Assembly (NCBI GenBank): GCA_037576195.1
Contig: CM075104.1
Span: 7,012,775-7,076,774, forward strand
DNA length: 64,000 bases
Reading direction: 5' to 3'
Source of the DNA: Phytoseiulus persimilis
Lineage: Eukaryota; Arthropoda; Arachnida; Mesostigmata; Phytoseiidae
In this document: positions 8,682 to 60,972 of the stretch, piece by piece
Numbering within the stretch: the first letter of the stretch is position 1
Layout: every line of letters begins with the position of its first letter
The notes under the pieces: model-generated
The model's database searches: none
What the model saw: only the letters and a program-made list of their open reading frames with translations
Told to the model about the DNA's origin: nothing
Made by a program: the position numbers and the translations under genes

Positions 8682-9852
8682 ATTTTTTTATTTGATTTTA
8701 TTGGACCTTACGTATGCACATAGGTTCCCTCTCATTTCAGGGGTGAATTGTATTGCATTCACAGGTGATAGCTCGTTGTTCTCCCATCGCCTTGGGGCAT
8801 CCATCGTCCTTCCCAGGTTCCTCGCTGTTGAATCAGGGTGAAGTCCTAGTCGGTACGGGAATCCCGTCTGCATCGAGCACATTTCATGTCTATGGAAGGG
8901 TCCCGGGAATTTTATCGGCTCTTGGTGTTGAGCATTCCTGCTCTGGCTATCGCCAATAACCGACTGCCCCGCGAGTTATCGTTCCCTCTCGAGACCTCGA
9001 GTCTCTTTAAACTGTCGAAAAACAGTTAATGTGGATCTGGACTCCATATGAAGTCCAACTTATCCCGCACTCTCGTTTTGAGTTCTTTGCGGAACATATT
9101 CCACATTGGTTTGCTCAGTGTATTCTTGGTCAGACTGAGATTTCAAAATCATACTAGGTTCTCAAACTTCTGAGTCTCTCCATTGCCTTCACTTTTGTGT
9201 TTGTTGACTCAGTTGCCGTGAGTACCATTCTGGGCCAGCTGGATGGATCCATCTGTTTCACTCTCTCGAAATACATGATTTTGCTGATGGTCTCCATGGC
9301 ATCGAAGGAGGACCAACCTAGATCTCCCTAAATAAACTCCTTTGATACGGTTCAGTGTGGCATGCCCATGGCCCACCTTCCCGCGTCCCTTTGTCTGATT
9401 TCAATGAGGTTTCTCAGCCTTCTGGGCATGGTCATCACTCCATTGCACCAGGTCAGTTGTGGTATTGCGGTGGCTTTCCAAAGAATTTTGGAGACTTCAA
9501 ACCTGTTGAAGCTCCAAAGAGTTCTCGCGTTGAGTCTTTTGATCGCCGTGTTGGCCTTGTCCGTCAGCTTATTCCAGTGTTGGGATGAGTAATCTTTTTC
9601 GGCCGATATTTCGATCCACAAGTGCTTATAGGATTCGACCATAGGTATTGACTTCCCTTGTATCTGTAGGTCTCGATTTGGATTGTGATCTGTTGAGGAT
9701 GGTTGAAATACCATCACTCTGCTCTTCGGGGGGTTAAATCTGATTGACCTCTCGGCTCCAAATTTGGATAACACCTCTAGAAGAGTTCTCATATCCGTCG
9801 TGTTGCTCGTTGCTCGTCATGAAGAGCAAATCGTCCGCGAACAACAAACCGA
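8682..9852 (-). pseudogene. LINE (non-LTR retrotransposon) 3' half, truncated
   Basis: Read on the minus strand, the segment opens inside the reverse transcriptase with the catalytic FADD box at about 9830-9843 (LLFADDLLFM). A frame change near 9800 is followed by an open frame (9352-9792) with FNPPKSRVMVF and a YKHLWIEIS segment typical of the RT thumb side. More than one frame is needed to continue through 9050-9350. A C-terminal RLGLHPDS segment lies near 8820-8860. The 3' end has AATAAA and an A-rich tail (8681-8703), as expected for a LINE. The clade is probably I/R1-like. It is non-functional: frameshifts are present, and the 5' part ends abruptly at 9852, where the tandem array begins. 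Confidence 0.8.
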
Positions 9853-10077
9853 GCCGAGTTGCTACCGCTACAGGAAACACTCGGCCGATTCTTTATCAAC
9901 GGTGGCAGCGCCTATGAAGTGTTCAGCGTCATTGACGAGTATGATGCGAAGGTGGCGAAGTTCCGAGCTCTTGCTCCAAGACTCCGACAGATGGTGAGAT
10001 CCTGTGTCAGGGCCTCCTCGAGCCCCCTCGCTTTGTATTACGTGGTCGAAATGGATCAATGGATCTACTACTGCTGA
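9853..10077 (+). pseudogene. 164-codon ORF, 5'-truncated copy
   Basis: Only the last 74 codons remain, beginning at the array edge. The frame matches the complete copies at 21338, 33097, 43498, 56589 and 60478. The end is -WIYYC followed by TGA, and AATAAA follows at 10148-10153. It has no start codon or upstream region, so it is probably silent. Its Met (not Thr) before DQWIYYC and the single-copy 26-nt marker at about 10750 group it with the 56589 copy. Confidence 0.75.
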
Positions 10078-15059: not shown

Positions 15060-16016
15060 TCAAACATGCATCACGGGTGCAAGGAAGAACCTTGGCTTGG
15101 GCCCAGAGGCAGACTCTCTGTATAAGTCTCTGTAAACGCGGGTTGCATTGTGGACGTTTTCGGTGATTCTTCGTCCTCGCTCTTGCCGCGGATCAACCAT
15201 GGAAATATACTCTGCCAAGTCATCAGCCATCCGAAAGAGAGTCGCCAGGTGGTCGCTAGTGAGCTCCTCTGGTGGAACCTCGATACAGTCTTCGTCGTCC
15301 TCGGTCTCCCCGTGAGCTCGTTCTTGATCCATCCCGATGAGCGTCTGATTGTCAAACCCGTCTGGTTTCCAATTGATCAACTCCTCTATGGTTTCCGTAT
15401 TCACTTCATCTAGACCTCCTTTCTTTGCGATTTCCACCATGCTTCCAATAATCTCAGTACGTTGCTCCTCATTGTTGACTGACACACTCGCGCAATGTGG
15501 TAGAATGATTTTCCAGACTGCTCTCATATTGTGCGCCGATATCTCATCCCAGGCCTCGATTATGTTGACGACAACTTTATTGATGTCGTATGTTTTCCAG
15601 AATTCGACCTACTTAGGATCATCTCCCATCACGTTCTTGATAGCTCGGGACATCGCTCGGCACAAGTAGTAAGCTTTGAAGGTTGAAATGAAACCTTGAT
15701 CCATGGGTTGGATCAAGGAGGTCGTATTCGGCGGGAAGAATGCTACTTTGATGTTTTTCTTCATGGTTGACAGTCCCGTTGAATGACCCGCAGTATTATC
15801 CAGGAGTAGAAGGATTTTGAATCCGATTCTCTTCGTGCGACAGTATCTTTCTGTCGCTGGGCACAAATAGTTGATAAACCAATCCTCGAAAAGAGCTTTG
15901 GTCATGCAGGCTTTTGGATTCGACCGCCATAGCACAAACAGTTCCTCTTCGCAAATTTTCTTGAGAGCTCGAGGATTCTTTTCTCGATAAACAAGCATTG
16001 GCTTCAGCTTCGACAA
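15060..16016 (-). pseudogene. Tigger/pogo-like transposase, C-terminal two thirds
   Basis: Read on the minus strand, the frame contains the DDE endonuclease region: FVLWRSNPKA and LLLDNTAGHS (second catalytic Asp within LLLDN), followed by FFPPNTTSLIQPMDQG, a hallmark of Tigger/TIGD and Jerky proteins. An in-frame TAG at 15609-15611 separates this from the C-terminal part (15060-15527), which continues in the same frame with WKPDG and acidic segments. The N-terminal CENP-B-like DNA-binding domain is absent. The element is a Tc1/mariner-superfamily relic that cannot encode an active enzyme. The second unit (36985-38170) has its own additional damage. Confidence 0.85.
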
Positions 16017-16101
16017 CTAAGATCGGAACTATATCCGTTAACTTTGATCGTTGGAGGTTTTATTTCGGGGCTTACTCCAAAAAATAAAACTGGGGAGTCA
16101 A

Positions 16102-16512
16102 ATGGCTTTCTTTCCCCACCGAAAAAGGATGAGTGAGGGAGGACATCAAAGAAACCTACAATCGCGGGTACAGAGTGTGAGTCAGCCAGCTAAGATAGTG
16201 GCAATTATCGACTCAGAAAGCGATTCGGGGAGTGTCCAGGAATCGAGACGCGGTGAACGAGGACCGGGGGGAAAGGAACATGCGATGACGGTTACTGAAC
16301 GCAAACTCCGGTTCCTGAAGAAAAACAGAGAGAACGCTCAAGGTGAAGTCAGTCAAAGAAAAACAAAAGAATGGTGTGACAGACACGTGAAAAACGTCTC
16401 TTTCACAGAAATGAGGCCGTCGATAGCCACAACAAGAGAGTCGGATCACCAGGATGGTACTCGACTGCCATTGATAATTACATTGGTCGTTGGAAACAAA
16501 AGCAACTTATGA
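16102..16512 (+). CDS. 136-residue basic protein with SIM-like motif, unknown
   Basis: An ATG-started frame, intact here and at 38256-38666 with two substitutions and no indels. The protein is rich in Lys, Arg, Glu and Ser. Around residue 32-43 it carries IVAIIDSESDSGS (IVEIIDSESDSGS in the other copy): a hydrophobic core followed by Ser and acidic residues. That arrangement fits a phospho-regulated SUMO-interaction motif. A Lys/Arg-rich helical stretch follows near residues 65-90. It lies head-to-head with the Tigger remnant, so it may be part of that element or a separate gene. I recognise no family, and two recent copies are weak evidence of coding. Confidence 0.35.
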   Translation: MAFFPHRKRMSEGGHQRNLQSRVQSVSQPAKIVAIIDSESDSGSVQESRRGERGPGGKEHAMTVTERKLRFLKKNRENAQGEVSQRKTKEWCDRHVKNVSFTEMRPSIATTRESDHQDGTRLPLIITLVVGNKSNL

Positions 16513-18067
16513 GTGCACGGACAAAAGTTCATCAGATGGAACAGAGAAGAAGTGGGAATCTACCTTACGATTGATACCCCTGTCTTGGTTAGCCGTACAC
16601 GATAACATGTAATATGGATGTATTTATGGATATTTATTGATCATTTCCTCTCTATCTCTACATTCCAAGTAGACCCTAGCTAAGAGGCAGTGGTGTGGCT
16701 GATATATGCGGCATTTCTCCCGTTGTGTTCGTTGTTCTGGCTGTTGGCGTTTTCCCATTCATCCAGTGCTTTCTTCGTGTCTAGTATCATCTTCGGTGTT
16801 GCGATCGTTCGAACACTCTGCGTCACAGCAGACGCTCCGTTCTCGTCATTAAGTAAATAAAGCCCTCAGTCGTGCTAGAGTGGTTACTCATACCGGCCGT
16901 GTTTTCCTGTGAAACCTTGCAACCTAACATTCGGAGTGCTGTTCTTGTCGAGTTCAAGCCTCTTTCGGGTCTCCTCCTCTACGTTGATCGTCTCAGACAT
17001 CGACGACGGTATCGTCAATTGAGCCATCGGGTTTTTTTGGAGATTCACGTTGCTTCGTCGAGAGTGGCAACGGTCGAAGGCTTATTCTTGACTACACCTG
17101 ACCATGGTCCCGGTAAATTCCAATTCGATCATTCGAAACAAGTAACGAAGCCTCGAATGGTACAACTTCGAACAGAGCTACAACGTTTGAATAATAACCG
17201 ATTCAGAACTCAAGATCACTAATTATCAGAGGAAATGGTTTCTGCCAACCCGATCCTAATGTCTTTCAACGTTCGAAATTTGCCACCACACGCTTTGGGT
17301 ATCACAAACGACAAAGTTTACATGCAATCCACAATTCTCTGTCCACCCCGAAAACCGTTACCTCGTTTTTCTGCAGGTGTTTCGAACGTGAGGTTTCGAT
17401 AAGATTTCGTATCGGTTCCAGGACTGCCCATTCCATCCCAGTTTATCACCGCTCCCGAGCTTTGATCGATTTGAGGAGCATTTTCAATCGCTGTCAGAAT
17501 TTCGAAAACTCAGGGACTCACAAATCCTCCTGGAGAGTGTCTGGCTGGACTGATCAGTTCGGAATAAGCAATTCTCGTCATCATACCTTTTTCTGTCAGA
17601 TCCGTGGTTTTGAAGCTGCAGGCCAAAGTGGAAAACAAGCATCATCCTCATATCCCGACCACGCTTTAGCGATTCGGCAAAACGTCGAACAGCGAATGCT
17701 CTCAATGAGAAATCCCGCGTTTCCTGGAATAGAAAAATGTATGAGACGAAGGAAGGGGTGGTCGTATAGGACAACCTCGACTCACAGATGACGTGGAGGA
17801 GTATAGCCCTGTTCACCAGCTCGCCGGCCCTTTGTAGTTTTGAGAATCCCCAACGATTCGGCCTACCTATTGCTTCCAGGAGATGGACCGGAAAAATCCC
17901 CATTCCTGCCGAGGCACTCTGTGAATCCGATGCGGCACCGCAGGGTCCGAACCGCCGATCCAATTCCGGCTCGAATTACTTCTTTCTGGAGCTCTTTCTA
18001 TGAAAAGTCCGCACTGATTACATGGGCTCGGCGGTTTCTGCGGTCTAGAATCATGGGGTCTCATCCA
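16513..18067. other. No recognised gene; contains FDRRFGP-like module
   Basis: Open frames at 16872-17222 (plus) and 17484-17963 (minus) lack ATG starts and known domains. The minus-strand frame begins with RRFGPCGAASDSQS, related to the module at 11290 and 11872. The module therefore exists in at least three versions and both orientations. Confidence 0.4.
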
Positions 18068-18645
18068 TCAAGAAGTCCTGACTTCAGATCGAATGAACCA
18101 AACCCTTGCTCGTCCGAGGTTGGGTTCATTCCGATTGAAGCCGAACAGATTCAAATTGAAAGCATCAACCGCGTTCCAGGAGGTGATCGTCCTACTGAGT
18201 GAAATTCGAATCGATGGACACGAGTGTGCGTGGACAAGCGGCTCATCGGCTCGAGAGATCGAGGAGAGGTTTCCGCGGAAACATTCGTGTTTCAAGTGTT
18301 TCGCTGCTGTTCCAGGGTTCTCGGAGGCGTCCGAATCCCCCGACGGATTGCAATAAGACTGCAATATTCTGTCGCAATTGACTCCCAACTCCGAGTTGAG
18401 GCGTTCGTCGAGTTCCGCAGCGCAGCTCTTGACTCCGAAGTCTACATTGACGTGTAGTGCAACATCTCCTCCAGACCATCCGCGGCCGCATCATTGCAGG
18501 TGAAGCAATCTCCTCGAGCGGACCCTTCTGTGAGCGAATCTCGGGTAGACCGAGACGATTCGCTGGGATGAACGCCTCCGAGAATTGAGACAGTGAAGAA
18601 GGGCTGTTCGGGAGCAGAATTTAGTTCCTCATACGTCTTCCTCAT
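18068..18645 (-). pseudogene. Diverged relative of the 164-codon ORF
   Basis: On the minus strand, the segment at 18480-18600 reads SESSRSTRDSLTEGSARGD, clearly related to SESSRSTPDSFTEGSAEGD in the 164-codon ORF. It has a 1-base indel just upstream and a stop soon after. A different frame (18068-18388) continues with a Cys-rich stretch of no known family. The similarity at DNA level fades towards the C-terminal half. This is an older, decayed paralogue. It is repeated at 40228-40805. Confidence 0.55.
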
Positions 18646-18734
18646 CTAACTTCCTGATCCCCTCGGCCCTTCCTGGTTTCGGACTGATCTCAGGAATGCC
18701 AGACCGACGGTTGCCGAACCTGCTCGCGTAATAG

Positions 18735-18785
18735 AGCGTGGCCCTCTGATGGAGGAGGCCCCTCTGATGGAGAAGGCCCCTCTAC
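18735..18785. repeat. Short 18-bp tandem repeat
   Basis: Two to three units of gatggaggaggcccctct and gatggagaaggcccctct. The same units are present at 40895-40945. Confidence 0.6.
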
Positions 18786-19133
18786 CAGAAGGGAAACGGT
18801 AATTGGTAATATGCCCAAGAACTAAGTGAGGAAGGCGCTGCTCGCGCGACATGGAGCAGACTGCACTTCCAGTTTTCCATTTCGTTGAGTGCGTTCGAGG
18901 GAGCGAAAGTGATGAGTCATGACAGAATCACCGCTGCTCTGTAGAAAAACTGAGATCTCTTGGTACGATCACTCCGATAGCTTGCAAAACCGCTCGGTCT
19001 GGGGGCTTGAACCGATCCACTACAGCCCCCGCCAAGAAAATCGGTTTCTGCACGCTCTATGGGTTCTCGGATTCGGATTCGATCCCTCGTTCTTGGGCCC
19101 GTGTGAGAGATTTCGTCAGCGCTCAAAAACTTC

Positions 19134-19650
19134 TTGAACTCGCCGCTGAGGCCGGGGGTTGGTTCCAGATTCGCGAGAAGAGAGAACTCCTGGGACGTGG
19201 TAACGTCCGAATTCGGGGACGAGGGGTCCGTCAAGTTTAACCGTCTGGAGAACGGAGTAATGGTAATCGATGAACCATCTGCGGATCGTGATCCAGATCT
19301 AGGCCTACAGAACCAAGGTAAGCCAATGTCTATGGTTGAATCCACTAAGTACTTGGGTATCGAAATATCGGTCGAAAGAGACAACTCAACCCAACATTGG
19401 AACGAGCTGAAAGAGACGGCGATCAAAAGACTCAATGCGAGAACGCTTTGGATTTTCAACAGCTTTGGGTCACAACTCACACGTCTTCCTGGAATGCGAG
19501 GAAGGGAAGTACTCCCAGAGGGGATTCCAGAACCGATTAGGACTCCATCCTGATTCAGCAGCCAAGAACCTTCAAAGGACGAGGGAAATCCTGAGAGGAT
19601 GACACACACGAGTAGGATCCAGTATATCCAAATCCATATAAAGAAAAAAC
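19134..19650 (+). pseudogene. LINE fragment with internal deletion
   Basis: This is homologous to the minus-strand LINE at 8682-9852. The plus frame shows VKFNRLENGVMV and the KYLGIEISVERD segment, matching the RT thumb region there. It jumps after LNARTLWIFNS to the C-terminal RLGLHPDS segment in another frame, then an A-rich tail near 19640. Most of the post-RT region is deleted. Copy two is at 41294-41810. Confidence 0.7.
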
Positions 19651-20266
19651 TGTGGAACTCGACGCATGGCCACTACCGTGATCGACGTTGTTTCACCTGG
19701 TGTCGATGATCGTCATCTTCTTGCCGTTGCTCGATAACAAGATAGAGTGGATCGAGGCGGCCATCTCTCTCTCTCTCGACTTGCACACTCCACGTTGCCT
19801 CCTCCACCCTTCAGCTGACTGTCCTCATCCGTGATTTCAGTTCGTAAGTAGCCAGAGAACCAGAATCTGTCGTAACTATCGTAACTCCGAGTGGTGTTAC
19901 CGGATTGACCTCGTAGTCGGTCTTGAACCTACTTCCGGGCGTGTTTCCTCCGATAATCGTGGTATGCGCTTGGCTGGGTGACATTGCGGTTATTGCGGTC
20001 GATGTCCTGTTCGGTCTTGGTCCATCGTGGCACGTCACCCTCGTGGAGGCATCTGCGTGTTCCAGCTCAATGCATTCGCCGACTTCATTCCGCTGCCGAA
20101 GGCGGCTCCGTGGCGACAAAAGGCGGGTCACTACCACGCGTTCCTCTGGTGCGGTGTCCCAACATCAGCGAGGACAATCCTCGACTAGCTGCAACTGCCA
20201 AACGCCACAGCAACCAGCGTAAAAAACCCCGGGCAATGGGAACGCCACCTCCGGGCCAGCCCCCCA
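19651..20266. other. No recognised gene; CT microsatellite
   Basis: A (CT)n run at about 19765-19780 is 4 bp longer than at 41925. Overlapping open frames are present on both strands (19811-20137 minus, 19978-20286 plus), with no domain visible. Confidence 0.35.
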
Positions 20267-20473
20267 ATGACGGACCACACGTTTAGGAATGGCAACGCAA
20301 CGGGGAGAGAAGACGCACCAGAAGCGATCGAAAGCAAAAACGCTGCGGAACCCCCACACAGCTCTAGCTCGTCATCGTCGTCGAGCTCCTCCGAAAGCGA
20401 CGACGAAGACGAAAACACTCACTGCCTCGAGATCCCTCAGACAGTCGCCTCCATGGACATGGAGGTGAGTTAG
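20267..20473 (+). CDS. Ser/acid-rich ORF, possible exon
   Basis: An ATG-started frame of 68 codons with a run of about eleven Ser followed by ESDDEDENTH. The frame ends just past GGAG|GTGAGT (20461-20470), which resembles a 5' splice donor, so this may be an exon or captured exon. No acceptor or partner exon was found. The copy at 42425-42631 is intact with one change. The composition is low complexity and the assignment weak. Confidence 0.25.
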   Translation: MTDHTFRNGNATGREDAPEAIESKNAAEPPHSSSSSSSSSSSESDDEDENTHCLEIPQTVASMDMEVS

Positions 20474-20503
20474 CTTGCTAAATGACTATCTCACCGAAGC
20501 AGT

Positions 20504-21132
20504 CACCAAATGCAGCTGGACGAAAAAGCCACACTTATGTACTTTCACCAGCCCCTGGGGAAGATTCAGATTCTTTAAAATGCCTCACGACATCGTTTGT
20601 GCTTCGGACGTCTTCCAACGCCTAACAGACGAGCTGTTTGCAAACTTGGAGGGCGCCAGCGCAGTGGTTGACGATATCCTGGTTTGGGGCTCCACCAAAG
20701 AGGAACACGATTGTCGACTTGAGAAGGTCCGACAACGTTGCGTTGAAGCCGGTATGGTGCTGAATCGGGCCAAGTGTAAAATTGTTCGGAATTCAGTCAA
20801 ATACTTCGGCCGCACAAGGTGCCGATTCTGAAGTTTTTCGACCCTACGAAACCGATCACGTTATCAGTGGATGCATGTCATTACGGCCTCGGGGCTCGGA
20901 ATGACTTCTCAAGTGTCGAATCATATCAATCGTCTCCTGATGAGCCCGGTTGGGGGATCTGGAGAGCTGTTTCCACTTCCTTGAAGACTCGTTACAGCAG
21001 CATGTCGGCGCGCATGCGCTCACCGAATCACCTTCCGATCGCAACAACAAAGAACTCACCGTAAAAGCTCTTCATATAGTTAAAGTGGCTGGAAAACTTC
21101 AGTTCGAATTCTCCACAGCTCCACGCTCATAG
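20504..21132 (+). pseudogene. Gypsy RT/RNase H fragment with deletion
   Basis: The segment carries the RT palm after the frame change, with the catalytic VVDDILVWGS box near 20665-20695 and a KCKIVRNSVKYFG segment. About 240 bp present at 32329-32568 are deleted, so it jumps to the start of RNase H (ITLSVDACHYGLGA). No protease or gag precedes it. Inactive. Copy two is at 42662-43290. Confidence 0.8.
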
Positions 21133-21183
21133 TATTGTGGGAACGCAAATGGATCGGACAGATGATCCGGTCGTTTCGGGTAG

Positions 21184-21193
21184 CCCCCCCCCC
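21184..21193 (+). repeat. Poly-C tract upstream of the 164-codon ORF
   Basis: A run of 10 C. The same position has 14 C at 32936, 12 at 43342, 17 at 56425 and 15 at 60316. Confidence 0.9.
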
Positions 21194-21196
21194 TGT

Positions 21197-21202
21197 TCAG
21201 TC
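21197..21202 (+). promoter_or_regulatory. Initiator-like TCAGTC upstream of the 164-codon ORF
   Basis: TCAGTC matches the arthropod initiator consensus TCAKTY. It is kept in all five complete modules (also 32955, 43357, 56447, 60336), 136-142 bases before the ATG. A GGTCA downstream-element-like match follows about 30 bases later. No TATA box is seen. Confidence 0.4.
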
Positions 21203-21337
21203 CGAAATCAGAGAGAGAGTATGAGAGGGTCAGATGAGAGAGACGAAGGAGGAGCCAGGCTCTGATTTAACCGGGTCGCCGAGGTTCACTCGTTATTCAT
21301 TCTGCATCGATTCAACAAAGTCGGAGATCCTACAAAC

Positions 21338-21832
21338 ATGCAGTGCTCTCAACTCTCCCCAAACGCCCGGAGCACCTCGTCTTCGTTGTCGCCATTCGCG
21401 GAGGAGTTCATCCCGAGCGAATCGTCCCGCAGTACTCCGGATTCCTTCACGGAGGGTTCCGCTGAAGGAGATCCCTCCAACTGCGATGTTGCGGATGGTG
21501 CAGAGGAGCTGGCAGGAGAAGTGACCGCGGAGGACTTCGCTGCCGAAATGATGGAGGGCCTCAGAACCTTCATAACAAATGTGACGCTGTCACCGGAGTT
21601 CTTCGAGGCCGAGTTGCTACCGCTACAGGAAACACTCGGCCGATTCTTTATCAACGGTGGCAGCGCCTATGAAGTGTTCAGCGTCATTGACGAGTATGAC
21701 GCGAAGGTGGCGAAGTTCCGAGCTCTTGCTCCAAGACTCCGACAGATGGTGAGATCCTGTGTCAGGGCCTCCTCGAGCCCCCTCGCTTTGTATTACGTGG
21801 TCGAAACGGATCAATGGATCTACTACTGCTGA
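21338..21832 (+). CDS. 164-residue protein of unknown family, copy 1
   Basis: A complete frame starting at ATG in a good context (ACAAACATG) and ending -WIYYC TGA. Residues 1-60 are Ser- and acid-rich and probably disordered. Residues 62-155 look mostly helical (EDFAAEMMEGLRTF, then an LPLQETLGRFF segment). A hydrophobic aromatic end follows. No signal peptide or known domain. I chose this start because the in-frame extension present in three copies (32992, 56484, 60373) is frameshifted here and at 43394, while this 164-codon frame is open in all five. AATAAA lies at 21903-21908. Poly-C, initiator-like site and poly(A) signal outline a compact intronless transcription unit of about 700 bases. 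This copy has Gly-Glu-Val-Thr at 60-63 and Thr before DQW, shared with the 43498 copy. Confidence 0.5.
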   Translation: MQCSQLSPNARSTSSSLSPFAEEFIPSESSRSTPDSFTEGSAEGDPSNCDVADGAEELAGEVTAEDFAAEMMEGLRTFITNVTLSPEFFEAELLPLQETLGRFFINGGSAYEVFSVIDEYDAKVAKFRALAPRLRQMVRSCVRASSSPLALYYVVETDQWIYYC

Positions 21833-21902
21833 AGGGGCCCACCAGCGTATTTCCACACCAGATTTTCCAGTGTATATATTGTATGTTGAGTGTTGCAGCT
21901 CC

Positions 21903-21908
21903 AATAAA
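21903..21908 (+). terminator. Polyadenylation signal AATAAA
   Basis: It lies about 70 bases past the stop of the 164-codon ORF. It is conserved at 10148, 33662, 44063, 57153 and 61043. Confidence 0.55.
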
Positions 21909-21949
21909 TTCCCTTTTCATCGTTACCTCATGTTTGAGAGATTCTTTTA

Positions 21950-23180
21950 ACACAAGGTTCGCAGATGAGGTTTGGACTGACCTTCCAGAAACAAGCGAAC
22001 ATCCGGATTCGAGCTAGATCGATCATGCTGAGCTCATGTCCGACTCCCAGGAGCCGAGAACAGCAGTATGCGATATTTGGAGTTGATCAGGAACCGGAAC
22101 TCGAGCTCAGACGATCGACAGTATGAAGGGTTCTGAACCGAGAGAAACACGCCGATTTCGGCCCCGTTTGCCAGAGCTTGAAAGGGAACAGGATGTCTGT
22201 GGAGAGCGTTTAGTTCAGAGCAGCGCTGCGTAATTGAGCGGACGATGCAATTCGAGGTTGGAAGTCAATCGCGGACTCCGTTGTCTCGCTCTCTCCGTGC
22301 GAGGAATGCATGTTCTTGAGCACTCATGCCTATTGGATCGTTCTTTCACCCGTGGGACAATATTCCCCATCGGAACGCGTCGTGGTGTCTTGTATTTGAC
22401 TCTGTCCGGCTTCACTTGGAACGAGCCCGCCCTTCATCCAGCGAGGAATTCATCCACCCAATATGTTATCATGATTTCCCGATGATCGGCCAAGGTTCTT
22501 GAGCCCAGGAACCGGTCCGGTGTGATGAGCTCCGGAACCGGTCCGGTGTGATGAGCTCCGGATTCTAGATAATCAGCCACTCAAAACCCTCTTGTGGGAC
22601 GAGGAGGGCATGTGTGGGGGTGACCACGTAGAGGATGTTGGTGCACTAAAACGGCAGCACAGGGTGCAAACAGCCGAGCCCGGGATCAGGCGCGACGGCG
22701 CTCGATGGCAGGACGATTCGCAGTCAGTAAGAAAGCATGACTTTGGGGTCGAGCTGGGTCTGTAAGGTCGGTCCAAGACTACCCGTCAGAGTCCCCTCTG
22801 GATTCAGGATTCCAACATTCCTTTCTCGTTCAGCCGTTAAGAAATGCGAGGAACTCATTTACTCGATTCAAAGTCATGCGAAGGCGAAGAAGATGAACCC
22901 GGCCTTGTTCGAGCGAGAGATTGATTCATTTTAACTGAACTCACGACTTCCTGATGGATGAGCACGCGTGATTCTCGACCTCAGAAACCGCTGTATCTAT
23001 GAGATCAGCGCCGAATCTTCACAGAAAGGGCTCCAGAAAAATAGTTATTCGGAGTTGGAGTTTGATCGGCGCATCGGACCCTGGGGTGCAGATTCGTTTT
23101 CACAGTGTGCTCGGGCTGGAATGGGATCTACGCAATCAAATATGAGCCCTGGGAAGGAAGGTTCTCAACTCACTTGAGAG
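21950..23180. other. Array spacer with 26-nt tandem duplication
   Basis: This is equivalent to 10190-11400. The gaaccggtccggtgtgatga marker is duplicated at 22508-22562. It contains the 36-codon ORF (22123-22233) and the DLRNR module (22968-23177), which here is not fused to gag. Confidence 0.6.
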
Positions 23181-23480
23181 GATAATGTCATCGCACTGGT
23201 GGATGCAAACCCGTTTCTGACGATAGAAGACGAAACTAGGCAGTTGTCGGAGTATCCCATGAAGCCGTTTGGAACCGCCAGCATGCCACTGGTTTCTCGA
23301 ATAAGAGGAATATTTAGCCGTCCCGTGAACTAAGTTATGGCCAATTGCGGAAACTTGTGGATAGTTGTGATGTTCTCCCCCGGGAGGACTGGCCCGATCT
23401 ATTTCTGAAGGAGACTGAACAGTCATGAATGCGCTCAACGGAGGACTAGATGTCAGGATTCCTGACATCTAACCCGAGGA
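23181..23480. other. Unassigned segment before the hAT remnant
   Basis: No gene recognised. It contains the aggcagttgtcggagtatcccatgaagccg block also present near 11728 and 35007. A short inverted repeat gatgtcaggattcctgacatc lies at 23449-23469. Confidence 0.4.
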
Positions 23481-25055
23481 ACCTAAGGGGCCAGGGATAT
23501 GATGTCTGCAGCACCATGAACGGGTCTTCCAGAGGACTCCAGGCAGAGATACAATACAAGCTGTCGTTCCACAAGAGTTGTGTTTCCACTGCGCGAGCCA
23601 TCCCGTGCATCTTGTAACTGTGCATTCTAGCGAGCTCGTACCAATACGGTCAGCGGCCGGATTGATGGCCAATGTCTGCGCTTTCTTATCAAGCTCCTGT
23701 GTGCGTGTGAGACTTGTGCAAGATCTGGTGAAAACCCACGCGCGTTCTTCGAGCAAGCGTAGGCTGAAGCCTCTCTGTGCCATTCGATGGGTGGAGAGTC
23801 ATCTTGCGTTCATCACCTTCAGAGAACTTCTCTCACCCATCAGTCATGCTCAAAGAGGGCTCAGGCAAGGAATCGGGGATGCCGTTTTTCGAGCCCATCA
23901 GATGCTCAGTTCGATCTCTAGATGCGAGTTCGTAACATCTCTGCTCATCATAGAAACCTTCTCTTCACTCTCTTTGACTCTATCCACCAGTCTCCAAGCG
24001 AAAGAACTTGACATCTTCTTGACATCGCTGCACTGGGGACCGCGGACAGCGTCCTCTCAGTTTTGAGGCAACGGCGAACGGATGCGGACGTTGTATTCAG
24101 AACAGTCTTCGGAGAGATCTCGCAGCTCTGCGCTGATCTAGATATCGACGCCCGCGTGCCTTCCTTGTGTGAGCGACAAACTCGGAGAGAGAATCATTCA
24201 TCTCTCTAATACGATTGAGGATTATTTCCGAGTTTCGATCCACCTCCCATACCTCGATAGCTCGATTGAAGGATTCATATCAATGTTCGCTGATTCGAGT
24301 CAAGATGTTCTGAAAGTACCATGCTTGGTGCCGAAATGGTTCTTGTGCGTTTGGCCCCCTCTTCTAAAATCACAGCCGGCTAACCCGCCAGCCGACAGCC
24401 AACGATGGCTGACGCGGCGGCGGCTGGAACGCCGCTTCCAAAGGCGCGATATTCGAACTGCCTGAGGAAACTCTGACCCGTTTCTTAACTTCGTCTTCTT
24501 CCTCCGTCTCCTTTCTCCCTGTACCGCCGGCTGACGGGCTGAGAACTCGCCATTTAGGCTGTTTTTCGCGCCGCTTCCGAAGAGGGGGCCAAACGCACAA
24601 GTACCGCCGAAATTAATGGTGAAGTCCTCTTTCCAAGACTTGCTCGACACGATAGACTTCTATGAACCCGAACTGTGGTAACAGCATCGTACGAGGCGAA
24701 TCCGATCGCTGGAAAGCCAAATGAGTCACTTGCCCTCGGAATGAACTTCCTGAGAGCCTGATCGAAGCTCTCAATCACTGCTCTCGGCTGAATGCCCGGG
24801 AATTTTTTACTTCTTCAAATATTCCCTACCTTACCCGTGACAACTGCCTCCCCGCAACAAAGTTTCAGCAGTCTGAGACTGCCTAAAACGTATCTAAGGT
24901 CTGTAATGGATGGAGAGCGTCTCAACGGATCGGCTTCCATGGACATTCAACGTGAAATTCCGGTCATGCCAGAAGAAGTCCTTGATCTCATCGCGACGGA
25001 TCCAGGGAAACTGGACATGATCCTCTGGAAGTCCAGAAATACAATTCGATATTAG
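23481..25055 (+). pseudogene. hAT-like (ZMYM1-type) transposase pseudogene
   Basis: Successive frames read as parts of one hAT transposase. First comes RGQGYDVCSTMNG (about 23481), then an FHCASHPVHLV segment, then LKPLCAIRWVESH (about 23770), then a VSIHLPYLDSSI segment (about 24230). The C-terminal dimerisation domain is at 24836-24990, with LPVTTASPQQSFSSLRLPKT and an ERLNG segment. Frames change at least three times. A MITE (24342-24601) interrupts it. An 8-base insertion near 24015 breaks this copy but not the one at 45627-47193. The N-terminal part with the BED or TTF zinc finger was not found. Inactive. Confidence 0.85.
24342..24601. mobile_element. 260-bp MITE inside the hAT pseudogene
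   Basis: It has perfect 23-bp terminal inverted repeats, starting CTTGTGCGTTTGGCCCCCTC (24342-24364 and 24579-24601), with weaker subterminal inversion further in. There is no coding capacity. No clean target-site duplication is visible. The flanks share only an imperfect ccgaaat-tgg. It is present at 46480-46739 in the second unit. Confidence 0.8.
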
Positions 25056-25440
25056 CGCTCTATCATTCAATTGCGCGTTGAACTGTTATTCTGTTCAGAA
25101 TCTTGTATATGAGAATCATCATTCGTCAGAGTGTACTAGCATGAAGGCTGGAGCAAGAACTCATTGGGTGAAAACGCTATTCTTGTGTGATGAAGCTAAT
25201 TTCATAAAATTTCGGTGGTCGAGTCCGAGATATGGTGACGATGGGTATGGCTAATACACTATCCATTCTGGAGGGAAGCAGTGTTGTTCTATTAGGTAGG
25301 TCAGAAAGTTCTTTCCGACTTCGATCTGAGTTACCGAATGCTTTCCTCGTATTTAATTTCTTGCCGGAGCTCACAACACCTGATCATGTTTCCGGGCACG
25401 AAAAAATCCCAGATGCTGAGTAGAAGATACCGAAAAGACT
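25056..25440. other. No recognised feature
   Basis: No gene, repeat or motif recognised. The segment is nearly identical to 47194-47578. Confidence 0.4.
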
Positions 25441-27115
25441 AGGACTACACGGAGGGAGCACGCCAGGGATGATATCCGACAGCAAGAGAATTCTTAAGAG
25501 ATGGAAACGGGAGAAGGACCCGGTCCTATCTCTTCAAATAAGAATAACCGCATCGTCGACCAGCTGACTGTGAGGCATCGCCCCGTACGAAGGGTCTCCT
25601 ACCATATTTGGAATGAAGATACAGCAGGAAGTTTGTCGACGGAAATTAATCAATCGATTAGATATTCTACATCTCCATATGGTTCTCTATGTGCCTCTCG
25701 AACCGAAACTCAGCTTCTCTCGGAGTCCGAGTGGGAGCTCGAAGCAGGTAGTGTGCTACTCTCAACGAGTCAAACACCCATTGCATGTCCTGCTGCTTTC
25801 CTTCGCTATTCTTCGGATACATTACCAAAATCGAGGAGGTAGTACAAAGGGAGTGGGAACACGTTACAGTGGCTAGGAATTTCGATGCCCACTTTAAAAC
25901 TTGAGGGGATGCCTATTCCACAGCAAAAGGGAGAGAACTCGAAGGAAGACTCGCAGCGGCGGACCTGTATATCATTAATGAGGGGACCATCCCGACCTTC
26001 ATGTCAGGGAACAGGAAATCATGTGTCGATATCACAACGAGCTCTCGGCTGGCGGATGTGGGATTGAGAAGACAAGCACAAAATCGGATCGTTTACCTAC
26101 CCGAAAGGACACCTTTGTTCGTCTAAGACCTGATGGAGCGATACGACCTCCAAGGAACGGAGGCGTCGAGTGAATTCATTCGCATGTACGAACACAAGCT
26201 GTCATCAGTCGACCATGAGTTCCTCTACACCACTGGAATGACAACCACCGAATGGAGAGGACCGAGTCAGAGGACCCCGTGTCCAGACTTGCCGACCACG
26301 GTTTCTACGCTCAACTTCGTATGAAGAAAGTGTACCACGAGCCGGATTATGATCGCCAATGTCAGAGATGAGGACTATCACGCTCGAAATACCATGCGAT
26401 TCACTGTAGACCAGTCAGGAGCATTGCCAGTCTAGCGGGGATAGAGTAGTCAGAAAACAGGGTGTGAAAGAATATGCAAATTATGTATCGTGAGAAATCT
26501 GTAACAGATGACGATATATCGAAGGCATAACCCTACATGCCAATCCGGTCTCGAGACCGGAAGCACTCATATTCCAGGGAGATAGCGTCGATGTGTCTCC
26601 TCCCCGAATCGTTCTCAGATCCGTCGTCGAGGATATCTACTGCACCCGTGACGATATGCTTCCATGCCAGCCGTAACTGTTCCTATCCGCCCCAACCTCA
26701 ACTACCGCGAGCCCTCTTAACATATTCGTTATGTATTCTCCGTGCCACATTACGGCAATCACAACAGCATCCTCCCTGTCGGAAGCTCGTCAGTTGAAAG
26801 CGGCAATTCACTTCAATCCTAAGATCCATGAAGAGGCAAAGAAGAGGATCGCGCCCTTCAACCTCGATACAGGAGACTGAGACCCGACCGTGAGAAAAGA
26901 GGAAGGAATCAAGGAGGAAACCCTGAGAAAGTGGCAAACATCTCCGAAGGTCAGGTGGACCCACGAATGCATTCCGGGCATTGGCAAGTGGATCCAGCGC
27001 GAGCACGGGGACCTAACGTCTCCTTCCAGGGGAGACTGCGTCGACTTGGACTTCCTCTTGAGGGCCGCTTCATCCCGGCGCAGACGGCGCGAGCGAGCCG
27101 AGAAACACTCACCGA
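25441..27115 (+). pseudogene. R1/I-like LINE remnant (endonuclease and C-terminal parts)
   Basis: From 25857 a frame shows an APE-type endonuclease C-terminal half: an NFDAHFKT segment (normally GDFNAH), an in-frame TGA, then GRELEGRLAAADLYIINEGT and PTFMSG, then SCVDITTSS (25900-26060). These are hallmark blocks of R1/I-type LINE endonucleases. Most of the reverse transcriptase is missing. At about 26919-27010 the post-RT segment RKWQTSPKVRWTHECIPGIG with a following REHG resembles the C-terminal region of such ORF2 proteins. Several frames and stops intervene. The open frame 26890-27546 is not a separate gene. Copy two is at 47579-49253. Confidence 0.75.
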
Positions 27116-28004
27116 ACGAAGTAAGTATGACCGCTAGTTTGCATGACATAGAGTCGTTTCCACTGCTGAGCTGTGGCCACGGCCTGAAATTCGAAAATGC
27201 TCCCAGGACAAACGAATATGCATACGATACAATCTCACAAAGTGAAACCCAATATTTCTCATTGATGCCCATCGGTTCGCCCTGCCTCAGCCACAACGAA
27301 GGCGAATCCCCGCGCATCCGATCGGGCACACCGACCGTGGTCACTAGTCGTGACTCACAACTCCCGTGTGTATATCCGAGGTTCTTCTCCCTCAATCGGG
27401 GATACCGAGAACGTTGGGTTCTGGGTAAGGCGCCGGAGGGTGCAGTGCATGTCCCTGGTTCAAGGGGGGATGTTCACTACAACTGTATATCTGCTCCCGG
27501 GGCCCGTATCTGCTCTTCTGTGGCAACTAGAAACTATCTGAAGTGAGCCCCGAGTGGAGGAGGCTTCAAGCTACTCACAGTAGAAAAATTGAGACGTAAC
27601 TTCGTTTCTTCCCCCGTCCAGCGTCCAGAATTCGCGGTTTTGCCCTGATTCTCCCTCGCCAGGATGAGATAGAGGGCTGTTTCTTTTTTGAAACGGTGGA
27701 TAATTTTCTCATCTTGAACTATATTTATGGCAATCCGGCTCCGAGGGCAATTAAAACATTTGAGATACACATACTGGAAAAGTCAAAGTTTGCTTGATGA
27801 CGAATTTCTCTGAGACTCCGCTTTCGCTGGGTATCATCCTCGTTCGAATCGAAATCGAAATTGGTGCATCTGGCGTGGAGATATCAGGGAGATGGTGGTC
27901 GGAAATGGGCCGGACCACGATTCCGAGAAATCGGGCCTCGAAATTGGTGATCACCGGAGTAAAGGCTCGCCATTTCTTGTGGTTTCCACCTGATTTCCCG
28001 GCAC
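27116..28004. other. No recognised gene
   Basis: The frame from 26890 stays open to 27546 without recognisable domains. Beyond it the sequence is A/T-richer and noncoding in appearance. Confidence 0.35.
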
Positions 28005-28460
28005 CAGAACCAGCTGGAGATTTCAATCATCCTTTGAAATGTAGGTGATTGATTCCTCTCGAAGATGAACTAGAACTATCGGGATCCGAACTGGGTAAGT
28101 TTTTTAAAATCGATGAGGAAGATGGAAAAGAACATTTTTTCTCGTTTGTCTAGCGATCCTCTCAAAGAGGACACGTCCGATCGCCATAATTCTAGTTAAT
28201 CTAACAGCCATATTCACCAGCAACCGATTGAAACAAACCGCTCCAAAATCGATGACTCCCACGAGTAGAAATCAGGGAAACGGTGGACCTGGTTTGACCA
28301 AAGTCTCCCGCCTTGTTCGGCCTCTCTCGATGCCTCTGATGGTTCTGACCCCATTTCTCGGCAATGGAACCAGCTAGAGACCTCAATTTTGTTTTGGGAT
28401 GGAACTGATGAATTTCTCTCGGAACTGAATTGGAACTTTCGGGATCCGAGCCGGAGAATA
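28005..28460 (+). repeat. Diverged direct repeat pair
   Basis: About 90 bases at 28005-28100 (ccagctggagatttcaat followed by ctatcgggatccgaactgg) recur, diverged, at 28370-28460. The same pair is at 50142-50237 and 50507-50597. Confidence 0.6.
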
Positions 28461-28537
28461 TTTCTGGAATCCGACTCTTGGAGCCATCGGTCGAATATCT
28501 CCCCTGTTTTCGGATAAAGAGCAGGGAAGTGTCATAT

Positions 28538-29022
28538 TGTAACGAGGTTTCCGCTATCTGCGAAAGCTCGCTCACAGGGCGTCCTAGCGACCTGGGGAAT
28601 GGATGGGCCGTCGCTCCCAGAGTGAGTAGGCGAACTTACTCGGACACAATTCGGAAGCGTGGGAGGGCGAGGTCGGACGGGTCTTGGGACGCTGGCCAGG
28701 GCGAGGACGGGACGTTGGGTCAGGGCACAATTACTCTCACAGCGGAGCGGGGCGCTTCAACTCTAAAGCTAGGGCTGTTGGGTTGGGAGAAAGGGACGGG
28801 CGTGAGGGTCCACAATTCGACTCCACTGTCTTCGTCTCGTCGTCTCTTTTTTATTCAGTCTCTCCTCTCTCGCCTTACTCTCGCTCCCTACACGTCTTGC
28901 GCACAGAATCGCTTGCATGTGACGTACATGTGGTCTCCCCTGACTGCTCTCTGGCTACCTGTCCAGATACGGTCGTCTTTGGAGTACCTCGACTGAATGT
29001 GGCTTCCTTGAGCTTCATGACA
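28538..29022 (-). mobile_element. Solo LTR of Gypsy-like family E3
   Basis: The plus strand reads TGTAAC...GACA over 485 bp. The same sequence lies reversed at 55910-56372, where a purine tract precedes it, which sets the element's sense here as minus. It has TG...CA ends and is flanked by ATAT on both sides (28534-28537, 29023-29026). No internal region is attached, consistent with LTR-LTR recombination after insertion. Copy two is at 50675-51159. Confidence 0.75.
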
Positions 29023-29026
29023 ATAT

Positions 29027-29296
29027 TGTAGGATTGTAAATGATCTCGCCCCGTGTAGCTCCAGCCCTAGGTACCGCTCATTGTTCCCGCCTCCGCTAGA
29101 GAGCGCCCCAGCCATCTCGGAGAAGATGGTGCGAGGGCGGAATTGGAAAGGAGAATTAGAGGCTGATCGTAGAGAGAGAACAGAGAATCACTTTTTCGGC
29201 ACGCGCGTTCGAGATTGGTCGCAACAGCGATACCCAATCAAGGACAGAAGAGCCAGCGAATAAACTGAGTGAAATCCCCGACCCTGCAACCTTACA
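29027..29296 (+). repeat. E2 5' LTR (270 bp)
   Basis: TG...CA ends. AATAAA at about 29259-29264 can serve as the polyadenylation signal. It differs from the 3' LTR by very few bases, implying recent insertion or gene conversion. Confidence 0.85.
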
Positions 29297-29307
29297 AGTG
29301 GTGGAGA

Positions 29308-30231: not shown

Positions 30232-30235
30232 ATAT

Positions 30236-33096: not shown

Positions 33097-33591
33097 ATGC
33101 AGTGCTCTCAACTCTTCCCAAACGCCCAGAGCACCTCTTCTTCGTTGTCGCCATACGCGGAGGAGTTCATCCCGAGCGAATCGTCCCGCAGTACTCCGGA
33201 TTCCTTCACGGAGGGTTCCGCTGAAGGAGATCCCTCCAACTGGGATGTTGCGGATGGTGCAGAGGAGCTGGCAGAAGAAGTGACCGCGGAGGACTTCGCT
33301 GCCGAAATGATGGAGGGCCTCAGAACCTTCATCACAAATGTGACGCTGTCACCGGAGTTCTTCGAGGCCGAGTTGCTACCGCTACAGGAAACACTCGGCC
33401 GATTCTTTATCAACGGTGGCAGCGCCTATGAAGTGTTCAGCGTCATTGACGAGTATGATGCGAAGGTGGCGAAGTTCCGAGCTCTTGCTCCAAGACTCCG
33501 ACAGATGGTGAGATCCTGTGTCAGGGCCTCCTCGAGCCCCCTCGCTTTGTATTACGTGGTCGAAATGGATCAATGGATCTACTACTGCTGA
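33097..33591 (+). CDS. 164-residue protein of unknown family, copy 2
   Basis: Complete frame, ATG to TGA, with the same layout as copy 1. It is marked by Phe at residue 7, Tyr at 20 and Trp at 49, and by Met before DQWIYYC, shared with the 60478 copy. Here the frame is open upstream to the ATG at 32992, adding 35 residues (MRETKEEPGS...), but that extension is not preserved in every copy. AATAAA is at 33662-33667. Confidence 0.5.
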   Translation: MQCSQLFPNAQSTSSSLSPYAEEFIPSESSRSTPDSFTEGSAEGDPSNWDVADGAEELAEEVTAEDFAAEMMEGLRTFITNVTLSPEFFEAELLPLQETLGRFFINGGSAYEVFSVIDEYDAKVAKFRALAPRLRQMVRSCVRASSSPLALYYVVEMDQWIYYC

Positions 33592-38170: not shown

Positions 38171-38255
38171 CCAAGATCGGAACTATATCCGTTAACTTTG
38201 ATCGTTGGAGGTTTTATTTCGGGGCTTACTCCAAAAAATAAAACTAGGGAGTCAA

Positions 38256-42631: not shown

Positions 42632-42661
42632 CTTGCTAAATGACTATCTCACCGAAGCAGT

Positions 42662-43290: not shown

Positions 43291-43341
43291 TATTGTGGGA
43301 ACGCAAATGGATCGGACAGATGATCCGGTCGTTTCGGGTAG

Positions 43342-43497: not shown

Positions 43498-43992
43498 ATG
43501 CAGTGCTCTCAACTCTCCCCAAACGCCCAGAGCACCTCGTCTTCGTTGTCGCCATTCGCGGAGGAGTTCATCCCGGACGAATCGTCCCGCAGTACTCCGG
43601 ATTCCTTCACGGAGGGTTCCGCTGAAGGAGATCCCTCCAACTGCGATGTTGCAGATGGTGCAGAGGAGCTGGCAGGAGAAGTGACCGCGGAGGACTTCGC
43701 TGCCGAAATGATGGAGGGCCTCAGAACCTTCATAACAAATGTGACGCTGTCACCGGAGTTCTTCGAGGCCGAGTTGCTACCGCTACAGGAAACACTCGGC
43801 CGATTCTTTATCAACGGTGGCAGCGCCTATGAAGTGTTCAGCGTCATTGACGAGTATGACGCGAAGGTGGCGAAGTTCCGAGCTCTTGCTCCAAGACTCC
43901 GACAGATGGTGAGATCCTGTGTCAGGGCCTCCTCGAGCCCCCTCGCTTTGTATTACGTGGTCGAAACGGATCAATGGATCTACTACTGCTGA
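43498..43992 (+). CDS. 164-residue protein of unknown family, copy 3
   Basis: Complete frame. It is closest to the 21338 copy (Gly-Glu-Val-Thr at 60-63, Thr before DQW) with Asp at residue 27 (IPDESS). As in that copy, the upstream extension from 43394 is out of frame, supporting the internal ATG as the start. AATAAA is at 44063-44068. Confidence 0.5.
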   Translation: MQCSQLSPNAQSTSSSLSPFAEEFIPDESSRSTPDSFTEGSAEGDPSNCDVADGAEELAGEVTAEDFAAEMMEGLRTFITNVTLSPEFFEAELLPLQETLGRFFINGGSAYEVFSVIDEYDAKVAKFRALAPRLRQMVRSCVRASSSPLALYYVVETDQWIYYC

Positions 43993-51159: not shown

Positions 51160-51163
51160 ATAT

Positions 51164-56588: not shown

Positions 56589-57083
56589 ATGCAGTGCTCT
56601 CAACTCTCCCCAAACGCCCAGAGCACCTCTTCTTCGTTGTCGCCATTCGCGGAGGAGTTCATCCCGAGCGAATCGTCCCGCAGTACTCCGGATTCCTTCA
56701 CGGAGGGTTCCGCTGAAGGAGATCCCTCCAACTGCGATGTTGCGGATGGTGCAGAGGAGCTGGCGGAAGAAGTGGCTGCGGAGGACTTCGCTGCCGAAAT
56801 GATGGAGGGCCTCAGAACCTTCATAACAAATGTGACGCTGTCACCGGAGTTCTTCGAGGCCGAGTTGCTACCGCTACAGGAAACACTCGGCCGATTCTTC
56901 ATCAACGGTGGCAGCGCCTATGAAGTGTTCAGCGTCATTGACGAGTATGATGCGAAGGTGGCGAAGTTCCGAGCTCTTGCTCCAAGACTCCGACAGATGG
57001 TGAGATCCTGTGTCAGGGCCTCCTCGAGCCCCCTCGCTTTGTATTACGTCGTCGAAATGGATCAATGGATCTGCTACTGCTGA
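56589..57083 (+). CDS. 164-residue protein of unknown family, copy 4
   Basis: Complete frame. It has Ala for Thr at residue 63 (EEVAAED) and ends -WICYC instead of -WIYYC. The upstream extension from the ATG at 56484 is open. Two silent differences lie in the otherwise invariant core. AATAAA is at 57153-57158. Confidence 0.5.
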   Translation: MQCSQLSPNAQSTSSSLSPFAEEFIPSESSRSTPDSFTEGSAEGDPSNCDVADGAEELAEEVAAEDFAAEMMEGLRTFITNVTLSPEFFEAELLPLQETLGRFFINGGSAYEVFSVIDEYDAKVAKFRALAPRLRQMVRSCVRASSSPLALYYVVEMDQWICYC

Positions 57084-60477: not shown

Positions 60478-60972
60478 ATGCAGTGCTCTCAACTCTTCCC
60501 AAACGCCCAGAGCACCTCTTCTTCGTTGTCGCCATACGCGGAGGAGTTCATCCCGAGCGAATCGTCCCGCAGTACTCCGGATTCCTTCACGGAGGGTTCC
60601 GCTGAAGGAGATCCCTCCAACTGGGATGTTGCGGATGGTGCAGAGGAGCTGGCAGAAGAAGTGACCGCGGAGGACTTCGCTGCCCAAATGATGGAGGGCC
60701 TCAGAACCTTCATCACAAATGTGACGCTGTCACCGGAGTTCTTCGAGGCCGAGTTGCTACCGCTACAGGAAACACTCGGCCGATTCTTTATCAACGGTGG
60801 CAGCGCCTATGAAGTGTTCAGCGTCATTGACGAGTATGATGCGAAGGTGGCGAAGTTCCGAGCTCTTGCTCCAAGACTCCGACAGATGGTGAGATCCTGT
60901 GTCAGGGCCTCCTCGAGCCCCCTCGCTTTGTATTACGTGGTCGAAATGGATCAATGGATCTACTACTGCTGA
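60478..60972 (+). CDS. 164-residue protein of unknown family, copy 5
   Basis: Complete frame of the same subtype as 33097 (Phe 7, Tyr 20, Trp 49), plus Gln for Glu in FAAQMMEGL. The upstream extension from 60373 is open. AATAAA is at 61043-61048. Confidence 0.5.
   Translation: MQCSQLFPNAQSTSSSLSPYAEEFIPSESSRSTPDSFTEGSAEGDPSNWDVADGAEELAEEVTAEDFAAQMMEGLRTFITNVTLSPEFFEAELLPLQETLGRFFINGGSAYEVFSVIDEYDAKVAKFRALAPRLRQMVRSCVRASSSPLALYYVVEMDQWIYYC

What the first reader, a model, noticed from the sequence alone, without database searches (positions are those of the whole stretch)
21133..21950. An undescribed 164-residue ORF family, intact in all five full copies
Seen: frames at 21338, 33097, 43498, 56589 and 60478 are all open with the same start and stop. 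Each has a poly-C tract, a TCAGTC initiator-like site, ACAAACATG context and AATAAA. Every recognised transposon ORF around them is broken. About ten amino-acid differences fall in the Ser/acid-rich N-terminal part and the last residues. The core (about 75-155) shows only silent differences, apart from one Glu/Gln at its edge. Inference: this may be a functional gene family carried by the array. Caution: the copies are recent, so intactness alone is modest evidence.
Basis: partly seen in the sequence, partly recalled or inferred. Interest (0 to 1): 0.75.

Follow-up and report, generated by a model that had tools for sequence, protein, structure and literature searches.

The report
Truncated PAIP1-like PABP-binding gene family
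The repeated small gene looks like a shortened, intron-free offshoot of PAIP1, a protein that works with the poly(A)-tail-binding protein in translation; it has spread over several chromosomes with its poly(A)-protein-binding motif kept intact, so it may tune protein synthesis.

Summary
In detail: five open 164-codon frames lie at the stated starts. It is a real multigene family: 26 of the 30 genomic loci fetched are near-full copies, on C2, C3, C4 and C118, and 20 of these 26 are intact, at 48-100% identity. Between subfamilies pN/pS is 0.44 overall, 0.12 at residues 14-27 and 0.33 in the core. A TATA-like box 72-73 nt before ATG and AATAAA recur in most; poly-C and TCAGTC occur only in the C4 array. 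Residues 14-27 are a PAM2 motif, the peptide that binds the MLLE domain of poly(A)-binding protein. The core aligns with the start of the PAIP1 MIF4G domain: core-only hhalign score 29.5 against at most 20.8 in 300 shuffles. The genome's own PAIP1 shares PAM2 and a 19-residue string with the family, but its exon 2 alone finds no family member genome-wide. The family lacks PAIP1's predicted introns and C-terminal half. Most likely they are PABP-binding decoys or adaptors; binding, expression and effect are inferred. No homologue among 5.8 billion proteins passed the threshold.

The parts
21338..21832 (+). copy 1 of the 164-codon PAIP1-like gene (stop included)
21377..21418 (+). PAM2 motif, residues 14-27 (SSSLSPFAEEFIPS)
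   Evidence: Pfam PAM2 in 15 of 15 members scanned, best E 0.005; this member 15.4 bits, below the curated cut-off of 20; invariant positions; between-subfamily pN/pS 0.12
21536..21757 (+). core, residues 67-140: four predicted helices that match the start of the PAIP1 MIF4G domain
21266..21270 (+). degenerate TATA-like site of copy 1 (tttaa; TTTAAA in sister copies)
   Evidence: copy 1 itself does not match the patterns
21903..21908 (+). AATAAA poly(A) signal
33097..33591 (+). copy 2
43498..43992 (+). copy 3
56589..57083 (+). copy 4
60478..60972 (+). copy 5
9850..10074 (+). truncated copy, 3' part only (residues 90-164, 97% identical)
   Evidence: C4:7022624-7022848; longer DNA match
18451..18612 (-). 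old antisense relic of the N-terminal part (a duplicate lies at 40646-40772)

Best explanation
The ORF is a member of a lineage-specific family of short, intronless genes derived from PAIP1, a gene of which this genome also has a normal copy. Each codes for an N-terminal PAM2 peptide, a variable Ser/acid-rich linker, and only the first two helical repeats of the PAIP1 MIF4G domain. The likely origin is a reverse-transcribed PAIP1 transcript that lost the 3' half, then spread by duplication, most recently in the C4 array (inferred). Likely action (inferred): the PAM2 peptide docks on the MLLE domain of cytoplasmic poly(A)-binding protein and competes with full PAIP1 and other PAM2 proteins. Because most of MIF4G and the C-terminal region are missing, the protein would act as a decoy or partial adaptor that damps or redirects PABP-dependent translation. 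Shown: intact copies, constraint, the PAM2 match, collinearity with vertebrate PAIP1, no intron inside the frame. Not shown: transcription, MLLE binding, effect on translation.
For: Identity. PAM2 is the only Pfam family found in 15 of 15 members scanned. The residues LSPFAEEFIP fit the consensus LNxxAxEFxP quoted in PMC7356810 (passages), with Ser at position 4 as in vertebrate PAIP1 (LSVNAPEFYP). hhalign of the family with 16 vertebrate PAIP1s, chosen by me from the 120 listed hits: E 6.3e-6, probability 85, 103 collinear columns running from PAM2 into MIF4G. Residues 62-164 only, PAM2 removed: score 29.5, probability 36.5, 57 ungapped columns, against 300 column shuffles with mean 12.8, sd 2.3, maximum 20.8. 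The genome's own PAIP1 (L064) has a PAM2 over the curated cut-off (23 bits) and 'LQMFITDVTLSPELF' where C4 members read 'LRTFITNVTLSPEFF'. The family HMM scores its three joined exons 24.5 bits, matching from PAM2 to the start of the core; 2000 shuffles, 1168 reported, highest 4.8. Exon 2 alone, without PAM2, scores 17.6 bits over 19 residues; 2000 shuffles, 1711 reported, highest 6.9. Vertebrate PAIP1 queries against the genome also reach family members: ranks 3 and 4 of 4 matches, E 4.5 and 6.0, behind proteins that I name NAT1 and eIF4G from recall; and rank 4 of 4, E 0.78, behind these two and PAIP1 itself. Structure: with PAIP1 rows in the alignment AlphaFold2 gives four helices with block pLDDT 86-94 for residues 71-140. 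Function: 20 of 26 near-full loci intact; pN/pS 0.12 at residues 14-27 and 0.33 in the core against 0.64 in the linker; TATA-like box and AATAAA shared by diverged copies. Origin: two phase-0 introns predicted in PAIP1 from GT/AG sites (between exons 1/2 and 2/3) are absent from the family.
Against: The Pfam PAM2 hit of the window protein is below the curated cut-off (15.4 against 20 bits) and no member scanned hits MIF4G in Pfam. Among solved structures PAIP1 is only E 0.3, behind NELF-C/D at E 0.023 over 33 residues. Host PAIP1 exon 2 alone, searched against the genome, finds only itself, and so, apart from one chance-level match, does the PAM2 exon. A longer open frame around exon 2 does find two family members (E 0.055 and 0.65), but 33-35 of the 56-58 matched query residues lie upstream of exon 2, in what I take for intron, so that result is not clean; if that likeness is real, the family may come from genomic DNA with part of intron 1, not from mRNA. 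The host match in the core is only 19 residues; the rest of the core rests on vertebrate PAIP1. Without PAIP1 rows the AlphaFold model is poor (pLDDT 55.8), the better model is not independent of the hypothesis, and neither has a significant PDB fold match. Three C4 copies carry Tyr for Phe20 and one Asp for Ser27 inside the PAM2 stretch. Within the C4 array alone pN/pS is 0.45 with a CI of 0.16-1.15, so selection there is not shown. Absence of introns is also compatible with intron gain in PAIP1.
Confidence: 0.67

Rival explanations
1. The family is functional and PAIP1-derived, but stimulates rather than competes: the retained first helical repeats still contact an initiation factor such as eIF4A, so each protein is a minimal PABP-tethered activator, perhaps in one tissue such as the germ line.
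For: The core is conserved (pN/pS 0.33), which a pure decoy would not need. PAIP1 stimulates translation through eIF3 and eIF4A (PMC9753129 and PMC10404277, passages).
Against: Most of MIF4G and the C-terminal region of PAIP1 are missing.
Confidence: 0.25
2. The copies are not genes but recent segmental duplicates, open only because there has been no time to decay.
For: Within the C4 array copies differ at only about 8 sites per pair, with pN/pS 0.45, CI 0.16-1.15.
Against: C2 and C3 members at 48-67% identity to the window protein and near-saturated synonymous sites are still open, with between-group pN/pS 0.44 (0.37-0.53) and a near-frozen PAM2.
Confidence: 0.05
3. The ORF belongs to a transposable element or an endogenous virus and spreads with it.
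For: The clusters looked at are embedded in transposon debris, and C4 copies sit in larger repeated units.
Against: Homology between subfamilies, read by eye, is limited to the gene plus about 110-140 bp upstream and the poly(A) region. No relative in viral contigs. No virus gene was noticed among the ORFs of 130 codons or more in the 12 fetched stretches, which were read by eye, not searched against a library.
Confidence: 0.07
4. PAM2 is real but the core is an unrelated helical domain, so this is a PAM2 protein of another kind.
For: Weak single-sequence scores for PAIP1; NELF-C/D ranks higher in the PDB search; host PAIP1 exon 2 alone does not find the family in the genome; the host match in the core is 19 residues.
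Against: Core-only profile match beyond all 300 shuffles at the collinear place; the shared FIT(N/D)VTLSPE(L/F)F string of C4 members and the host exon, above all reported shuffles.
Confidence: 0.14

Closest known systems
[quoted passage not shown]
   Same: N-terminal PAM2, linker, start of the MIF4G domain in the same order; ungapped 57-column core match with vertebrate PAIP1; shared string FIT(N/D)VTLSPE(L/F)F between C4 members and the host gene
   Different: ends after about two helical repeats; no rest of MIF4G and no PAIP1 C-terminal region; no intron inside the frame; many copies against the one PAIP1 found here
PAIP2
   Same: small PABP-binding protein with PAM2 and without a full MIF4G; competes with PAIP1 or eIF4G and represses translation (PMC9753129 passage)
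   Different: PAIP2 consists of PAM1 and PAM2; here a MIF4G-like helical core is present and PAM1 was not looked for
eIF4G and NAT1/DAP5 MIF4G proteins
   Same: MIF4G domain proteins (names recalled)
   Different: no full MIF4G here and no PAM2-plus-MIF4G order shown for them; a direct profile comparison with eIF4G was not made

Membership tests
PAM2-motif proteins | L-[NS]-x-x-A-x-E-F-x-P peptide | tested here: met
   positions L17, S18, A21, E23, F24, P26 invariant in 15 of 15 aligned members; Pfam PAM2 in 15 of 15, but the window member is below the curated cut-off
PAM2-motif proteins | binds the MLLE domain of PABP | not testable with these tools
   the genome does encode MLLE: 4 matches, 3 over the cut-off, in two genes, a PABP at C1:33994634 and another at C2:51079389
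PAIP1 | PAM2 followed by the start of a PAIP1-type MIF4G domain | tested here: met
   against:
PAIP1 | complete MIF4G domain | tested here: not met
   frames end after 153-164 residues, about two helical repeats; no MIF4G hit in Pfam
PAIP1 | conserved region C-terminal to MIF4G (holding PAM1, recalled) | tested here: not met
   no room for such a region in any of the 20 intact frames; a short divergent tail instead
PAIP2 | PAM1 plus PAM2 only | tested here: not met
   a MIF4G-like core is present; PAM1 itself not tested
transposon- or virus-borne ORF | common element ends or companion genes around copies at unrelated sites | tested here: inconclusive
   homology between subfamilies stops near the gene; no viral relative; element ends not mapped

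The most novel reading that the evidence does not exclude
An animal lineage has turned a truncated copy of a general translation factor (PAIP1) into a large, still expanding family of PABP-binding competitors. They bind the MLLE-bearing PABP and set the balance of translation, deadenylation or termination in some tissue or stage, perhaps the germ line or defence against transposon or viral mRNAs.
Probability: 0.25. Interest if true: 0.75.

Novelty: new variant of a known kind. Interest (0 to 1): 0.57.

Why it matters
Global translation factors are usually kept in one or few copies (general knowledge). At least 20 intact short genes that keep PAIP1's PABP-docking peptide and drop most of the rest would be a natural, repeated experiment on what the PABP-PAIP1 contact does, and a lineage-specific layer of translational control that annotation pipelines can miss because the genes are short, intronless and sit in repeats.

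Tried and rejected
Searches that gave nothing: the 164-residue protein and the 15-member profile against 5.8 billion proteins (the collection does hold eukaryotes; only proteins sharing exact 5-residue words and of similar length are candidates); a viral-contig scan (83 pattern matches, none confirmed); Foldseek of both models against the PDB (no match at E<=0.001). NELF-C/D as a relative was rejected: a match of 33 residues with E 0.02. The upstream 35-codon extension as coding was rejected because the TATA-like box lies in it. My first view that no canonical PAIP1 exists in the genome was wrong: it is split by introns and was found with a full-length query. The Pfam MIF4G scan of the genome (13 matches) does not list PAIP1 or the family. 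I first read as the exon 2 of PAIP1 finding the family; on checking, most of the matched query lay upstream of the exon, and exon 2 alone found only itself. A species name was not obtained; a mite is a guess from memory (four large contigs seen), and an exact TTAGG-repeat pattern search was empty.

Papers: PMC7356810, PMC9753129 and PMC10404277 were seen as the start of the abstract and passages. No paper on such a family turned up with the terms PAIP1+PAM2+gene family+expansion, PAIP1+mite, PAIP1+retrogene, or 'polyadenylate-binding protein-interacting protein 1'+arthropod (titles and starts of abstracts seen). A search for predatory mite genomes listed nothing that I used.

Full report
What was claimed. 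The ORFs are as described: 5 of 5 open, same start and stop, ten variable residues, invariant from 75 to 155.

Genome-wide picture. The window lies in a 181-Mb, 127-contig genome of unnamed origin, at C4:7012775-7076774. The window protein has 46 matches there; a C3 member has 43, in the same regions. These counts are lower bounds. Of the 30 loci fetched, 26 are near-full copies: 8 in the C4 array at 7.03-7.10 Mb, 5 on C2 at 4.17-4.44 Mb, 11 on C3 (3.87-3.89, 4.45-4.47 and 7.10 Mb), 1 at C4 11.6 Mb and 1 on C118. Twenty are intact (7 C4, 5 C2, 8 C3); 6 are broken (L008, L013, L015, L019, L021, L027). The other 4 loci (L016, L028, L029, L030) are fragments. At least one more broken near-full copy lies in L049 at 1595-2051, in two frames, so the ratio is 20 intact of at least 27.

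Selection. With four groups (19 of the 20 intact frames; L026 left out), between-group pN/pS is 0.44 (bootstrap over codons, 95% CI 0.37-0.53). By region: residues 14-27 0.12 (0.03-0.28); core 67-140 0.33 (0.24-0.46); tail 0.56 (0.41-0.72); linker 0.64 (0.49-0.89); first 13 residues 0.95 (0.49-2.33). Pairs are not independent and synonymous sites are near saturation, so these are rough. Within groups: C4 0.45 (0.16-1.15), which proves nothing; C2 0.33 (0.20-0.52); C3a 0.34 (0.23-0.53); C3b 0.52 (0.37-0.77). The older copies carry the argument.

Regulatory anatomy. An upstream alignment of diverged copies shows GAGA-rich sequence and a TATA-like box at -72/-73: TTTAAA or TATAAA in 11 of 20, 16 of 20 with spellings taken from the alignment, none found in 4. 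AATAAA follows the stop in 18 of 20. Poly-C and TCAGTC are in 7 of 7 intact C4 copies and 0 of 13 others.

What the protein is. Residues 14-27 read SSSLSPFAEEFIPS. Pfam PAM2 is found in 15 of 15 members scanned, at best E 0.005 and, for the window protein, below the curated cut-off. The published consensus is LNxxAxEFxP, its Phe being a main determinant of MLLE binding (PMC7356810, passages). The family profile finds PAIP1 in the PDB only weakly (E 0.3, behind NELF-C/D), but profile against profile gives E 6.3e-6 and a collinear match from PAM2 into MIF4G of 16 vertebrate PAIP1s. With PAM2 removed the score is still 29.5 against a maximum of 20.8 in 300 column shuffles, though the hhalign probability is only 36.5. 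AlphaFold2 from window copies alone is poor but already gives the helices; with PAIP1 rows added residues 71-140 rise to block pLDDT 86-94. That rise is not independent of the hypothesis, and Foldseek finds no significant match for either model.

The PAIP1 gene of this genome. A full-length vertebrate PAIP1 query found a match at C2:31358604 (E 0.011). The stretch around it (L064) holds a PAIP1-like gene: an exon with PAM2 YTLSPNAQEFIPN (over the Pfam cut-off), an exon DDAALQLQMFITDVTLSPELF..., an exon with NFRYSGANLC, and a later part of MIF4G. Exon limits are predicted from GT/AG sites. The family HMM scores the three joined exons 24.5 bits, from PAM2 to the start of the core; the best reported shuffle scores 4.8. 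Exon 2 alone scores 17.6 bits over 19 residues (FIT(N/D)VTLSPE and neighbours), the best reported shuffle 6.9.

A check that went against me. As a genomic query, exon 2 alone finds only itself. A longer open frame around it finds two family members at E 0.055 and 0.65, but 33-35 of the 56-58 matched query residues lie upstream of the exon, in predicted intron. Either that part is chance, or the family took in part of intron 1 and so came from genomic DNA. The PAM2 exon as a query finds only itself and one chance-level match. So the link to the host PAIP1 rests on PAM2 plus a 19-residue string, and the link of the rest of the core on vertebrate PAIP1.

Origin. The two predicted phase-0 introns of PAIP1 in this region are absent from the family, which fits a reverse-transcribed origin but does not prove it. 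The C2 and C3 members keep FETE, which vertebrate PAIP1 has and the host PAIP1 lacks, which suggests an old split (inference).

How it may work. PAIP1 stimulates translation by binding PABP, eIF3 and eIF4A; PAIP2 competes for PABP and represses (PMC9753129, passages); loss of Paip1 in Drosophila lowers translation (PMC10404277, start of abstract). The family keeps the docking peptide and two helical repeats and drops the rest. The simplest reading is a competitor or partial adaptor on the MLLE domain. The genome has MLLE over the cut-off in two genes, one a PABP with RNA-binding repeats, the other perhaps UBR5 (names recalled). The sign of the effect is open.

Verdict. The family is real and constrained, and most likely PAIP1-derived; it is a new variant of the PAIP1 kind, not an unknown fold. 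It fails two features of PAIP1 proper (whole MIF4G, C-terminal region), so I do not file it as PAIP1 but as a truncated PAIP1-derived family.

Noticed in passing
window 15698-30232 and 37852-52369; 56372-60086 and 60263-64000: Large recent segmental duplications: a 14.5-kb unit 99.4% identical at a 22.15-kb offset, and a 3.7-kb unit 97.7% identical at a 3.9-kb offset.
   Followed up: partly
window 5017-6456; L051 9524-10000, L052 1-4620, L057 8484-8999: A 45-bp minisatellite in the window; arrays whose open frames read like (LESNGQIGLGITPPE)n, by eye the same repeat, lie beside several distant copies of the family. It may just be common in this genome.
   Followed up: no
L054 2653-3420 and L056 2668-3321: A C2H2 zinc-finger ORF of 210 codons, nearly identical at two C2 clusters, seems co-duplicated with the family copies.
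   Followed up: no
G000 C1:42329190 and C1:48679553: Two similar MIF4G genes that look like CWC22 copies (name recalled).
   Followed up: no
G000 C2:43858402-43860141: Four identical-scoring fragments of the family core in a tandem array with a 509-bp period.
   Followed up: no
L064 1054-1155: The predicted intron 1 of the host PAIP1, read in the exon 2 frame, resembles the linker of C2 members; chance or a trace of how the family arose.
   Followed up: partly
window 2463-3674, minus strand: A 403-codon ORF resembling an arthropod gustatory receptor by eye; no Pfam match at E<=1.
   Followed up: no
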